DNA from: Schaalia odontolytica
Lineage (GTDB): Bacteria > Actinomycetota > Actinomycetes > Actinomycetales > Actinomycetaceae
Direction: 5' to 3'
Assembly: GCF_031191545.1 (NCBI RefSeq)
Contig: NZ_CP133472.1
Coordinates: forward strand, 1,984,001 to 2,048,000
Length of the DNA stretch: 64,000 bases
The first letter of the stretch is position 1. The number at the start of each line of letters is the position of its first letter. Below the pieces are notes generated by a model. The model ran no database searches and was not told the origin of the DNA. It worked only from the letters and a program-made list of their open reading frames with translations. Of the stretch, positions 46,143 through 50,634 are shown in pieces. The position numbers and the translations under genes are program-made.

Positions 46143-46178
46143 TTGACGAGTCTTTGTAATTAGGCTTAATATACCTAA
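46143..46178 (+). promoter_or_regulatory. Promoter with overlapping DtxR/IdeR-like operator
   Basis: TTGACG (46143-46148) and TTAATA (46166-46171) with a 17-base spacer form the promoter. The -10 lies inside TTAGGCTTAATATACCTAA (46160-46178), whose TTAGG and CCTAA ends match the 19-bp DtxR/IdeR consensus TTAGGTTAGGCTAACCTAA exactly. The centre is degenerate but AT-rich. A metal-loaded repressor here would block RNA polymerase. The local sequence is strikingly AT-rich for this genome. Regulation by iron or manganese is inferred. Confidence 0.7.
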
Positions 46179-46671: not shown

Positions 46672-47535
46672 GTGAGGGTCCTACTTCGTCGGAAAACCGT
46701 GCGCGTCGGCGCGGTTGTCCTCGTGCTATCCCTCGTCCTCATCCTCGGCGTCGTCGTTCGCAATGCGATGCGTTACGGTGAGGCCATCGCTCGTCACGAG
46801 GCCGGGGACGCCCAGGGGGCCTACGAGATCTTCCGTTCTCTGGGTGGCTACGGCGATGCCGCGCAGCGCGCGCAGGCCCTCGTGGCCGCAGACCCGGCGC
46901 TACCGTACCGATCCGCCTCCAAGGGAGACACGGTGTCTTTCGGGGCCTACGAGCAGGACGGGAACGTGGAGAACGGTCCGGAGCCGATTCGGTGGATCGT
47001 TCTGGACAAGATCGATGGACAACTTTTGCTCCTGAGTGCCGATGTCATCGAGGCCCGTCAGTATCACCACGTGCCCTTCGAAGAGGTCACGTGGGAACAC
47101 TCCGACCTGCGAGCGTGGATGAACGCAGACTTCTACGAGGCGGCATTCGCCCTCGATCAGCGTGGCCTCATCGCGACGGTGCACAACGACAACGCGGATC
47201 AGTCCATCACCGGCGCAACTGGCGGGGCCGCGACCGATGACAGAGTCTTTGCGCTGAGTGAGACCGAGAGCCTCATCTACCTCAACACCCCCGCCGCGCG
47301 CAGTGATATCGGTGCCGCGCTCGCCAGCCAGCACGCGGCCGCCGGTCCGCTGAGCGTCAGCGAGGACGGGACGGCCGACTGGTGGCTTCGTTCTCCCGGA
47401 ACCTACGGATTCGCGACGCAATTCGTCGATGCTTCGGGCACGCCGTCGCTCAGCGGAGCGAACGTCGACCTGCAGTACGGGGTGCGTCCGGCCCTGTGGA
47501 TCAACGTTGCGGGAGCCGGTGAGGAGAAGCGATGA
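46672..47535 (+). CDS. Membrane-anchored DUF6273-domain protein
   Basis: Type II membrane protein of 287 residues: basic N-terminus, one hydrophobic helix (about residues 12-28), a short TPR-like helical hairpin (AIARHEAGDAQGAYEIFRSL then GDAAQRAQAL), and a C-terminal DUF6273-type domain (IRWIVLDKIDGQLLLLSADV, SDLRAWMNADFYEAAF, DWWLRSPG, GVRPALWI). Such C-lectin-like domains are extracellular and of unknown function. GTG start with GGGAG upstream; an ATG six codons earlier is possible. The stop overlaps the first permease start by ATGA, tying it to the transporter. Confidence 0.75.
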   Translation: MRVLLRRKTVRVGAVVLVLSLVLILGVVVRNAMRYGEAIARHEAGDAQGAYEIFRSLGGYGDAAQRAQALVAADPALPYRSASKGDTVSFGAYEQDGNVENGPEPIRWIVLDKIDGQLLLLSADVIEARQYHHVPFEEVTWEHSDLRAWMNADFYEAAFALDQRGLIATVHNDNADQSITGATGGAATDDRVFALSETESLIYLNTPAARSDIGAALASQHAAAGPLSVSEDGTADWWLRSPGTYGFATQFVDASGTPSLSGANVDLQYGVRPALWINVAGAGEEKR

Positions 47536-48722
47536 ACAAGGCGCTGTCGCTGCGCCGAGTTCCCCTCATGAACATCGGCGCACACCCCATCCGATCCATC
47601 GTTATAGCGATCCTCGCACTTTCGCAGGCGGCGTGCGTCTTCGGTGGGTTCGCTCTTGTCGATACGATGAGGAGCGAGCTGTCGCTGGCTCAGCGCAGGC
47701 TCGGTGCCGACCTCGTTGTCTATCCGACGAACTGCCTGAACCTTGTGGAGAAGAAGCGTCTGCTCATGCTGGGAACCCCGGTGGGCTGCCATCAGCCACG
47801 CGCGGCCCTGGCACGCATGTCCGCCAACGAGGACATCGTCGCGGTGTCCTACCAGCTCTATGTCTCCGAAACGCTGATGGATGGCAGTTCCCGGTGGGTC
47901 GTCGGCTTCGAGCCGGAGACCGACTTCGTACTGGGTCCCTGGACGCGCGAGGGGGAAGGCGCGCCACTGCCGCGCGGCTCTGTCCTGGTGGGTAGCGCCG
48001 TGGCATCTGACAGCGAGCAAACGCTGAGCGTGTTCGGGATGCCCCGACCGATCGGCGCACGTCTGATGCAGACCGGCTCGGAGCTGGACAACGCCGTCTT
48101 CGTCAGCATGGACACACTCTCCGACATCGTGGCGGATGCCTCCGCATCGGGGGAGGCCACCCTCGCCGCGGTCGATCCGAGCCGCGACTACTCCGCTGCG
48201 CTCGTGCGAGCTTCGGACAGTGACGCGATCGAGAGCGTCACCAACTGGATCAACCTCTACGTGCGCAAGGTGACCGCCGTTCGCAGCAACGAGGCCCTCG
48301 TGGACGCGGGGGCGGGCATTCGATCGCATCGCCTCGTCGCGATCGGGGTGCTCGGTGGCATCTGGCTGGTGCTCCTCGGAGCGCTCGGCGTCGTCCAGCT
48401 CACCCTCATGAACGAACGCCGGAGCGAACTTGCCGTGTGGCGCTCCATCGGCGCCTCGCGCGGAGTCATGAGTCGCATCATGGTGGGAGAATCAGCGCTT
48501 CTCCACGGCGCGGGAGCGATCGTGGGCGTGGGGATCACAGCCCTCGCACTGTCCCTGGCGGGGGAGGGGAGCGTCGTCGATGCCCTGCGCGCCCCAGCCG
48601 CGTCGCTGCCGCTAGCAGCGGTTTCGATAGTGGTCGTGATTGGCGTGGGAATCGGCGGGACGCGGCTCGCGCTCGCTCGGGTCAACCGCGCGGCGACGGG
48701 GCAGAAGACGCTTCTGGTCTAG
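47532..48722 (+). CDS. FtsX/MacB-type ABC transporter permease, first
   Basis: A 396-residue permease with one N-terminal membrane helix, a large extracytoplasmic MacB_PCD-like domain and three C-terminal helices (FtsX domain; RRSELAVWRSIGASRGVMSRIM is the typical coupling loop). The extracytoplasmic part carries Cys68 and Cys86 in NCLNLVEKKRLL and GTPVGCHQP. Family members move lipoproteins, peptides, heme or other hydrophobic molecules with a MacB/LolD-type ATPase rather than acting as channels. ATG overlaps the upstream stop. Paired with a second permease 27 bases downstream. Confidence 0.85.
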   Translation: MNKALSLRRVPLMNIGAHPIRSIVIAILALSQAACVFGGFALVDTMRSELSLAQRRLGADLVVYPTNCLNLVEKKRLLMLGTPVGCHQPRAALARMSANEDIVAVSYQLYVSETLMDGSSRWVVGFEPETDFVLGPWTREGEGAPLPRGSVLVGSAVASDSEQTLSVFGMPRPIGARLMQTGSELDNAVFVSMDTLSDIVADASASGEATLAAVDPSRDYSAALVRASDSDAIESVTNWINLYVRKVTAVRSNEALVDAGAGIRSHRLVAIGVLGGIWLVLLGALGVVQLTLMNERRSELAVWRSIGASRGVMSRIMVGESALLHGAGAIVGVGITALALSLAGEGSVVDALRAPAASLPLAAVSIVVVIGVGIGGTRLALARVNRAATGQKTLLV

Positions 48723-48749: not shown

Positions 48750-49958
48750 ATGCTGTCGCTCTCGGCACTTCCGTGGATGAACCTGCGCGGGTACCCCGTG
48801 CGGACGGGAACCCTGATTGTGTTCTCCATGCTCATGACGATGACGATCTTCGGTGGAACCCTGGTCATCCAAGGAATCGAACACGGCCTGCGCACCGTCC
48901 AGTCGCGACTCGGGGCCGACATCATGGTCACCCCTGCCCAGGCCGACACGGACTTCGACGCGCAGACCTTCCTTGTGAGCGCCGAACCGTCCTACTTCTA
49001 TATGGAAGCGGCCACGCGCGAGAAAGTCGCCGCCATCGACGGAGTCGAAGCGGCCTCCTCCCAGCTCTTCCTGGCCTCGGCGAGGGCAAGCTGCTGCTCG
49101 GGCCGCTACCAGGTGATCGCCTACGACCCCTCCACCGACTTCACCATCCAGCCGTGGATGAGCGACGCAGTGGGACGGACGCAGCTGGGTGACAACGAGG
49201 TGATCGTTGGCGCCAACGTGCTTGCCAACGACCCGAATAACTTCCAGCTCTTCGACAACACGCTCACGGTCGTCGGCCAATTCGACCCCACCGGCTCGAA
49301 CCTCGACAACGCGGTCTACATGAACTTTGACACCGCGAAAATGGTCATCGACTCATCGCTACGCAAGGGACTGAACAAGTACTCGACTCTGGAGACAGAC
49401 AACATCATCTCCACGGTCATGGTCAAGGTCAAGGCCGGACACGACGCCGAGGCAGTGGCCGCGCAGATCAGCCAGCAGGTGCCGGGTGTCTCGGTGGCGA
49501 CCTCGACGAATCTGGTCAGCGGCATCGCGCAGTCGCTGGATGCAACCTCGCGCACCGTCACCGTCCTCATCGCCCTCGCGTGGGCCGTCGGACTGCTCAT
49601 GATCACCCTCGTGTTCGTCCTGATGATCCAGGAGCGCAGGAGAGAGTTCGCCACCCTTATCGCGGCGGGGGCCCACCGGCGCATGATCTCCGGAATCATC
49701 ATCCGCGAGGCTCTCGCGGTTAACCTCCTCGGAGGTGCCGGCGGCATCGTCGTGTCGGGCGTCCTCCTCGTGTCCTTCTCAGGCCTCGTGCGCGAAGGTC
49801 TGGGAGGGGGATTCCTGGTCCCGTCCGTTCCTACGATGGCGCTCCTTGCGCTGGGAGCTCTCGCGTCGGTGGGTTTCGTCGCCCTCGTGTCCTCGTGGAT
49901 AGCGCTACGGTACGTGACGAGGATGGACGCAAGCCTGGCCCTGAAGGAAGGGGAATGA
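48750..49958 (+). CDS. FtsX/MacB-type ABC transporter permease, second
   Basis: A 402-residue homologue of the preceding gene with the same topology (N-terminal helix, extracytoplasmic domain, three C-terminal helices; ERRREFATLIAAGAHRRMISGII coupling loop). It has a vicinal cysteine pair, Cys115-Cys116, in ARASCCSGRYQ, followed by YDPSTDFTIQPW, the same segment that reads FEPETDFVLGPW in the first permease. The pair therefore arose by duplication and likely forms a heterodimer. ATG follows AAGGAGGAATGACGCA; two bases separate it from the ATPase gene. Confidence 0.87.
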   Translation: MLSLSALPWMNLRGYPVRTGTLIVFSMLMTMTIFGGTLVIQGIEHGLRTVQSRLGADIMVTPAQADTDFDAQTFLVSAEPSYFYMEAATREKVAAIDGVEAASSQLFLASARASCCSGRYQVIAYDPSTDFTIQPWMSDAVGRTQLGDNEVIVGANVLANDPNNFQLFDNTLTVVGQFDPTGSNLDNAVYMNFDTAKMVIDSSLRKGLNKYSTLETDNIISTVMVKVKAGHDAEAVAAQISQQVPGVSVATSTNLVSGIAQSLDATSRTVTVLIALAWAVGLLMITLVFVLMIQERRREFATLIAAGAHRRMISGIIIREALAVNLLGGAGGIVVSGVLLVSFSGLVREGLGGGFLVPSVPTMALLALGALASVGFVALVSSWIALRYVTRMDASLALKEGE

Positions 49959-49959
49959 C

Positions 49960-50634
49960 ATGATCATCGAGGCAACGGCATTGACAAAAGACTTCGCCAG
50001 GGCGCGTGGAGGCGCACGAGTCTTTACCGCCGTCCACCCGCTAGACCTCGGCTTGGACGAGGGCGAGCTGACCCTCGTCTCCGGCCACTCTGGGAGCGGC
50101 AAGAGCACCCTGCTCAACATGCTTGCCGGCATGCTCACCCCCACGGCGGGAAGCGTTCGAATCGACGACACCGACCTGTACTCGCTGCGCGACGAGGAAC
50201 TCTCGCGCCTGCGCAACGAACGCATCGGCCTCGTCCCCCAGGGGCACACGGCCCTGCGCGCCCTGACGGTCCTGGACAATGTCCTGCTGCCCTCGGTCCT
50301 CTACAACAGGGCCGAGGCACCCGCCGAACGTGCCCGCGAGCTCCTGGACAACGTGGGGCTTGGTGACCTCGCCGATGCCAAGCCCACCGAGCTCTCGGGC
50401 GGAGAACTACGCCGCATGGCGATCGCCCGAGCCCTCCTCATGAACCCGTCGATTATCCTCGCGGACGAGCCGACAGCCGGCCTCGATAGCCCGAATGCGG
50501 CCGGGGTCCTCACCCTCCTGCGTAACGCCGCTGACGCGGGGACAGCAGTTCTCGTCGTTTCGCACGAGGCAGAGGCCAGCCGCTACGCGCAGCGCTGCTA
50601 CACGATGGAAGACGGCCACCTGAGCCAGCAGTGA
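49960..50634 (+). CDS. MacB/LolD-type ABC transporter ATPase
   Basis: Nucleotide-binding subunit of 224 residues: Walker A SGHSGSGKSTLLN, Q-loop LVPQGHTALRALTVLDN, signature ELSGGELRRMAIARAL, Walker B IILADEPTAGLD, switch VVSHEAE. The sequence is of the MacB/LolD/HrtA group that works with FtsX-type permeases. It is the last gene of the five-gene island under the DtxR-like operator. The whole could export heme, a metal complex, a lipid or a lipoprotein; HrtAB-like heme export is the closest functional analogy but is not established. Confidence 0.9.
   Translation: MIIEATALTKDFARARGGARVFTAVHPLDLGLDEGELTLVSGHSGSGKSTLLNMLAGMLTPTAGSVRIDDTDLYSLRDEELSRLRNERIGLVPQGHTALRALTVLDNVLLPSVLYNRAEAPAERARELLDNVGLGDLADAKPTELSGGELRRMAIARALLMNPSIILADEPTAGLDSPNAAGVLTLLRNAADAGTAVLVVSHEAEASRYAQRCYTMEDGHLSQQ

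What the first reader, a model, noticed from the sequence alone, without database searches (positions are those of the whole stretch)
46143..46178. DtxR/IdeR-like operator covering the -10 of a five-gene membrane island
TTAGGCTTAATATACCTAA shares both 5-bp ends with the DtxR consensus and overlaps a well-spaced promoter (TTGACG-17-TTAATA). It is the only such site noticed in the window. It predicts iron- or manganese-dependent repression of the DUF4418-ABC system.
Basis: partly seen in the sequence, partly recalled or inferred. Interest (0 to 1): 0.75.

Follow-up and report, generated by a model that had tools for sequence, protein, structure and literature searches.

The report
Probable iron-repressor site before DUF4418 operon
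A short DNA switch in an actinobacterium, resembling the sites of the iron-sensing repressor DtxR/IdeR, probably shuts off a five-gene membrane system when iron is plentiful, and that little-studied system looks like a helper of a known iron-uptake pump.

Summary
In detail: TTAGGCTTAATATACCTAA (46160-46178) covers the -10 of a promoter 45 nt before the DUF4418 start. Only its ends fit the consensus (12/19), so it is a weak-to-middling DtxR/IdeR box. With a matrix from 38 published DtxR sites it is the window's best site and beats 11 of those 38. A significant box lies upstream of DUF4418 in 17 of 21 genomes (this one included), against 0 of 20 other upstream regions of the window; the exact palindrome is found in this genome alone. 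The genome has an IdeR/DtxR ortholog and stronger boxes before a Peripla_BP_2 gene and before FTR1-P19-FtrD-FtsX-FtsX-ATPase. The main gain is functional: of 200 family genomes, all 37 with DUF4418 also carry P19 (58 of 200 do), in 14 within 10 kb. The island is most likely an IdeR-repressed FtsX-type ABC module that assists FTR1-P19 (Fet) iron uptake, perhaps by relaying thiol reductant (inferred). Iron is likelier than manganese, on indirect evidence: a Nramp gene and one ZnuA-type gene show another palindrome. No binding or expression data exist.

The parts
46143..46148 (+). -35 hexamer TTGACG
   Evidence: TTGAC(A/G) upstream of DUF4418 in 12 of 18 genus genomes, this one included (counted by eye)
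46166..46172 (+). -10 element, TTAATA (17-nt spacer) or TAATAT (18-nt spacer)
46160..46178 (.). DtxR/IdeR-type operator TTAGGCTTAATATACCTAA
   Evidence: 12.4 bits with a matrix of 38 published DtxR sites, p 0.002; only exact TTAGG-N9-CCTAA in the genome
46224..46640 (+). DUF4418 protein, 138 aa, four predicted helices, invariant Cys30, Cys41-His42, Cys96-Met-Met, Cys103
   Evidence: Pfam PF14387 E 1.5e-19 (from start 46203); 25-row alignment; AlphaFold pLDDT 87
46672..47535 (+). DUF6273 protein
   Evidence: Pfam PF19789 E 5.2e-29
47532..48722 (+). FtsX-type permease 1
   Evidence: Pfam PF02687 E 5.2e-07; overlaps DUF6273 by 4 nt
48750..49958 (+). FtsX/MacB-type permease 2 with invariant Cys115-Cys116-Ser117 between its first and second long helices
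   Evidence: Pfam PF02687, PF12704; 17 of 17 rows; model
49960..50634 (+). ABC ATPase, nearest to LolD in NCBIfam but below its cut-off
   Evidence: Pfam PF00005 E 6.5e-34

Best explanation
The site is a modest-affinity operator of the iron sensor IdeR/DtxR. With enough Fe2+, metal-loaded IdeR dimers cover the -10 and block RNA polymerase; under iron starvation IdeR leaves and the five-gene operon DUF4418-DUF6273-FtsX-FtsX-ATPase is made. The product is a FtsX/MacB-type ABC module that works beside the FTR1-P19-FtrD (Fet) iron uptake system, as FetBCD is proposed to do in Campylobacter; its cysteines (four in DUF4418, a vicinal pair in permease 2) probably relay reducing equivalents or bind metal so that ferric iron is reduced before import. 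Shown here: the site, a box upstream of DUF4418 in most relatives tested, a regulator gene, co-occurrence and frequent adjacency with P19. Inferred: binding, iron repression, thiol relay.
For: Matrix score and promoter shuffles: 17 of 21 DUF4418 promoters at p<0.01, this one included, against 0 of 20 control regions. Consensus-like boxes in relatives, e.g. TTAGGGTAGGCTTACCTGG (L048), CAAGGTTAGGCTTAGCTAT (L006, L009), TTAGGTAAGGATGGCCTTA (L003). IdeR ortholog: phmmer E 2.8e-64 to 7b1v (S. erythraea IdeR according to PMC8464063) and 8.6e-58 to DtxR 1bi0. Own-genome boxes at a Peripla_BP_2 gene (24.7 bits) and at FTR1 (exact 14-bp TTAGG-N4-CCTAA, 16.7 bits). DUF4418 implies P19: 37 of 37 in 200 family genomes, 14 of them within 10 kb against 0.3 by a rough estimate; collapsed to genera p 4e-4. 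In L097, L100, L101 and L102 the operon is followed by FTR1-P19-FtrD-FtsX-FtsX. Literature: C. jejuni fetA, fetB, fetC and fetD mutants are growth-impaired, in proportion to iron availability (PMC10783030, abstract and passages); sifABCDE of B. [quoted passage not shown]
Against: The box matches the consensus at only 12 of 19 positions and neither 14-bp single-dimer half is good (7/10 and 6/10, counted by hand). Pattern counts show no genome-wide excess: TTAGG-N9-CCTAA up to 1 mismatch 6 against 32 for the reversed control; TWAGG-N4-CCTWA 4 against 3, and two of those four (L114, L116) are not at obvious iron genes. In the own-genome stretches I held, picked by pattern, at least five other places score higher: L034 24.7, L093 16.7, L116 16.2, L115 13.9, L037 12.5; the genome-wide rank is unknown. 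The exact palindrome is in none of 17 genus-mates; L004, L005, L016 and L017 show no significant box, the regions were chosen after the alignment had been seen, and several genomes are near-identical, so the 21 are not independent. Only 11 of 19 FTR1 promoters reach p<0.05. The window's FtsX pair is only about 25% identical to the P19-linked pair. No binding or expression data.
Confidence: 0.72

Rival explanations
1. The second DtxR-family protein (MntR-like, with FeoA-type C-terminus) binds the site and the operon answers to manganese.
Against: The Nramp gene and one of three ZnuA-type loci carry a different palindrome with CCGAA half-sites (TTCGGGTAACCGAA; TTCGGGTACGCGAA on the other strand) and score only 7.5 and 5.1 bits with the DtxR matrix; seen by eye in two promoters, no statistical test. 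Co-occurrence is with P19.
Confidence: 0.1
2. The palindrome is chance: an A+T-rich -10 region happened to gain both TTAGG and CCTAA; the operon is constitutive or controlled otherwise.
For: About 0.8 exact end matches expected per genome (arithmetic) and about 1 site of this matrix score per Markov genome; no excess of either pattern over its reversed control; the palindrome is not conserved letter by letter.
Against: Position in a promoter of an iron-linked operon; 17 of 21 DUF4418 promoters have a significant DtxR-type box, 0 of 20 control regions.
Confidence: 0.13
3. The operon is iron-regulated, but its ABC module exports something else under iron starvation (lipoprotein, peptide, haem or a siderophore-like compound) rather than serving FTR1-P19.
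For: MacB/LolD-type ABC systems export or pull lipoproteins and peptides (recalled); the ATPase is nearest to LolD in NCBIfam, far below its cut-off. Some clostridial copies lie beside FrdA/FrdB-like genes (by eye) and, in L055, DsbD_TM and thioredoxin-like genes, with no FTR1 seen in the stretch listed.
Against: Co-occurrence with P19 in 37 of 37 and adjacency in 14 of 37.
Confidence: 0.3

Closest known systems
DtxR/IdeR operators (C. glutamicum, C. diphtheriae, S. erythraea)
   Same: Both outer 5-bp ends and the 19-bp length; the known site TTAGGATAGCTTTACCTAA of C. diphtheriae has the same ends (PMC524172 Table 1, passage).
   Different: Centre CTTAATATA departs from TTAGSCTAA; 12/19 to the consensus against 16/19 for that site (counted by hand).
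FetMP-FetABCDEF of Campylobacter jejuni (FTR1-P19-DUF2318-FtsX-FtsX-ATPase-thioredoxins)
   Same: Two permeases plus ATPase beside a Cys-bearing membrane protein, tied to FTR1 and P19.
   Different: Here DUF4418 (four helices, four invariant Cys) and DUF6273 stand in place of FetA/DUF2318; the FtsX pair is only about 25% identical to the P19-linked pair of the same genome, which has that operon as well. Control there is by Fur (PMC10783030, passage), here presumably by IdeR.
bfeUO-sifABCDE of Bifidobacterium breve
   Same: Actinobacterial cluster with two permeases and an ATPase, induced by dipyridyl and involved in ferrous iron transport (PMC5449479, abstract and passages).
   Different: The paper's main text holds neither 'DUF' nor 'DtxR' (0 hits); its proteins were not compared here.

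Membership tests
DtxR/IdeR operator | 19-bp match to TTAGGTTAGSCTAACCTAA comparable with known sites | tested here: inconclusive
   12/19; matrix 12.4 bits, above 11 of 38 known sites scored leave-one-out
DtxR/IdeR operator | 14-bp single-dimer TTAGG-N4-CCTAA | tested here: not met
   Exact TWAGG-N4-CCTWA search of the genome lists four places, not this one
DtxR/IdeR operator | cognate regulator in the genome | tested here: met
DtxR/IdeR operator | a box conserved upstream of orthologous genes | tested here: met
   p<0.01 in 17 of 21 promoters including this one, though not the same letters; exact palindrome in none of 17 genus-mates
DtxR/IdeR operator | metal-dependent binding and repression | not testable with these tools
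   needs gel shift and expression data
Fet (FTR1-P19) iron-uptake accessory module | neighbourhood or co-occurrence with FTR1 and P19 | tested here: met
   P19 in 37 of 37; 14 of 37 within 10 kb; FTR1 beside P19 in all 20 stretches read (P19 itself hidden in some rows, present)
Fet (FTR1-P19) iron-uptake accessory module | FetA/DUF2318 subunit in the operon | tested here: not met
   DUF4418 and DUF6273 instead; FtrD is in the separate operon L093
DsbB/VKOR-type four-helix thiol enzymes (considered for DUF4418) | fold match to solved structures | tested here: inconclusive
   331 PDB matches at E<=10, none at E<=0.001; the 50 rows shown hold no DsbB or VKOR entry

The most novel reading that the evidence does not exclude
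DUF4418-FtsX-FtsX-ATPase is an undescribed, IdeR-repressed thiol-redox ABC machine: it uses ATP, a Cys/Met/His-rich four-helix protein and a dicysteine permease to reduce or hand over iron outside the membrane for FTR1-P19, a second, parallel 'FetBCD' found in Actinomycetaceae, Chloroflexi and Clostridia.
Probability: 0.35. Interest if true: 0.72.

Novelty: new variant of a known kind. Interest (0 to 1): 0.5.

Why it matters
It gives a domain of unknown function a concrete, testable role: DUF4418 occurs in one paper of the held library, in a table row. What the FtsX-type ABC module does in FTR1-P19 iron uptake is an open question (its substrates are called unknown in PMC6083913, passage); a genome that carries two unlike modules, one under its own likely iron box, is a good place to separate their jobs. 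It also suggests how a repressor's site can drift within a genus while control is kept.

Tried and rejected
Plain consensus counting: 12/19 is not exceptional, so a matrix from published sites was used. Manganese control: set aside because a Nramp gene and one of three ZnuA-type loci show another palindrome (by eye, untested). Weak DUF4418 hits in proteins of about 440-460 aa look like MFS transporters (recalled, no family call) and were left out of all counts; 18 of 35 genus genomes and 37 of 200 family genomes are counts over the Pfam cut-off (21 of 35 and 40 of 200 at E<=0.001). L108 was left out of the FTR1 promoter test because its gene start was called too far upstream (19 of 20 tested). 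Of the 33 loci ten are Actinomycetaceae; seven repeat genus genomes and three were added to the promoter test; the upstream DNA of nine of the 23 others was only looked at by eye. Fold search gave no relative for DUF4418; no fold search was run for permease 2. A whole-genome ranking by matrix was not done.

Notebook correction: entry 3 says 12 of 19 FTR1 promoters at p<0.05; the recount is 11.

Full report
What is there. The 19-bp palindrome TTAGGCTTAATATACCTAA sits at 46160-46178, over the -10 of a TTGACG promoter, the only promoter-like hit of a pattern scan of 351 nt. DUF4418 starts at GTG 46224, 45 nt after the box; DUF6273, two FtsX permeases and a LolD-like ATPase follow with gaps of 31, -4, 27 and 1 nt. 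Upstream is a dihydrodipicolinate synthase gene, downstream a ribonuclease J gene.

Is it more than chance? The two ends alone are weak evidence: about 0.8 exact copies would be expected in a genome of this size at 65% G+C (arithmetic), and one is found; with one mismatch there are 6 places against 32 for the reversed pattern. By plain consensus it has 12 of 19 matches, as have 19 other places in the window, and one place has 14. I therefore built a symmetrised matrix from 30 C. glutamicum sites shifted by DtxR (PMC1382209 Table 1, passage) and 8 known C. diphtheriae sites (PMC524172 Table 1, passage). The window site scores 12.4 bits: best in the window, above 11 of the 38 known sites scored leave-one-out (median 14.4), and p 0.002 against dinucleotide shuffles of its promoter. 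About one such score is expected per Markov genome. Of 20 other upstream regions of the window none reaches p<0.01 and one p<0.05. In own-genome stretches picked by pattern, five other places score higher (L034, L093, L116, L115, L037); its rank in the whole genome is unknown.

Conservation. TTGAC(A/G) stands upstream of DUF4418 in 12 of 18 genus genomes, this one included (by eye). With three further Actinomycetaceae, 17 of 21 promoters hold a DtxR-type box at p<0.01; L004, L005, L016 and L017 do not. The region limits were chosen after seeing the alignment, and several genomes are near-identical, so this is not 21 independent tests. Two forms appear: consensus-like boxes (14.6 to 18.2 bits in L002, L003, L006, L009, L010, L018 and L048), and in the close kin of the window an eroded form around TTAGGCTTA-N-TATAC. 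In L012 to L015 the best match lies 15 nt further downstream. So the control looks ancestral; the exact palindrome, absent from the 17 genus-mates, does not.

Regulator. The genome has two DtxR-family genes. One, at C1:1.5566 Mb, is an IdeR/DtxR ortholog (phmmer E 2.8e-64 to 7b1v, 8.6e-58 to DtxR 1bi0; Pfam). The other, at C1:138 kb, has a FeoA-type C-terminus; MntR-like is my label. Own-genome boxes: TTAGGTTAGGCTTACCTAT before a Peripla_BP_2 gene (24.7 bits); the exact 14-bp TTAGGTTTGCCTAA before FTR1 (16.7 bits); TTAGGTTTACCTTA at the start of a DUF2218 gene. The 14-mer search found four places against three for its reversed control, and two of the four are not at obvious iron genes. The 14-bp single-dimer consensus is from PMC8464063 (passages). 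The Nramp gene and one of three ZnuA-type loci show instead a palindrome with CCGAA half-sites (by eye), so iron is the likelier signal here.

What the operon is. In Lachnospiraceae-type contigs L058, L063, L065 and L066 DUF4418 is followed by an FTR1-like and an FtrD/DUF2318-like gene, with a P19-like gene seen in three (in L065 an opposite frame hides that place), and in L058, L065 and L066 by two FtsX-like permeases; L063 ends at FtrD (by eye; five proteins of L066, and FTR1 and FtrD of L053, confirmed by Pfam). In this genome a complete FTR1-P19-FtrD-FtsX-FtsX-ATPase operon lies at C1:818-827 kb. In L097, L100, L101 and L102 it follows the DUF4418 operon (some genes are hidden there by overlapping frames; P19). 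Over 200 family genomes, 37 have DUF4418 over the cut-off and all 37 have P19, which 58 of 200 have (hypergeometric 1e-25 by genome, not corrected for kinship; collapsed to genera 8 of 8 within 16 of 36, p 4e-4). In 14 of 37 the two lie within 10 kb, against 0.3 by a rough estimate. The reverse does not hold: 21 P19 genomes lack DUF4418.

Anatomy. In 25 of 25 aligned DUF4418 proteins Cys30, Cys41-His42, Cys96-Met-Met and Cys103 are invariant; AlphaFold gives four helices, the cysteines in or next to the loops 1-2 and 3-4, thus presumably at one end (pLDDT 87), without a significant match among solved structures. Permease 2 has an invariant Cys-Cys-Ser at 115-117 in 17 of 17 rows, in the part between helices 16-54 and 252-295, in a low-confidence loop. 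The pair is absent from the four P19-linked permeases aligned.

Mechanism. In C. jejuni fetA, fetB, fetC and fetD mutants are growth-impaired in proportion to iron availability, and the authors propose that the ABC transporter and FetA relay reducing power for FetMP (PMC10783030, abstract and passages). In B. [quoted passage not shown] By analogy the DUF4418 module is most likely a second such relay, made when IdeR lets go of the promoter. Binding, iron response and the redox role are inferred, not shown. In a B. longum transcription table a DUF4418 gene and a permease gene listed next to it stand at -2.24 and -2.12 (PMC7701253, one passage); the conditions were not read in detail and this does not bear on iron.

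Novelty. The operator is a new member of a known kind. The module is the newer part. Only search 32 asked for DUF4418: it returned that one paper, so a link with P19 or IdeR is not in print as far as this open-access library shows; subscription journals are mostly not held.

Noticed in passing
L121 1366-1384 and L118 2614-2632 (C1:392.8 kb Nramp; C1:630 kb ZnuA-type): Shared palindrome with CCGAA half-sites (TTCGGGTAACCGAA; TTCGGGTACGCGAA), a candidate operator of the second, MntR-like DtxR-family regulator; its half-site differs from IdeR's CCTAA by one base. Seen by eye, not tested.
   Followed up: partly
window 49092-49100 (permease 2 residues 115-117): Invariant Cys-Cys-Ser in all 17 aligned permease-2 sequences of DUF4418 systems, absent from the permease-1 rows and from the four P19-linked permeases.
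   Followed up: partly
L055, L057, L069, L070, L071: Clostridial DUF4418 genes lie near FrdA/FrdB-like flavoprotein genes (by eye); L055 also has DsbD_TM (CcdA-like) and thioredoxin-like genes; this hints at an extracytoplasmic electron route.
   Followed up: no
G000:C1:1234942 (L115): IdeR-type 14-mer TTAGGTTTACCTTA at the start of a DUF2218 gene, divergent to an amino-acid-permease-like gene (the latter by eye).
   Followed up: partly
L116 1501-1620 (C1:1.9146 Mb): A 16.2-bit DtxR-like box and an exact TWAGG-N4-CCTWA upstream of a large secreted protein (protease-like by eye); possible further IdeR target.
   Followed up: no
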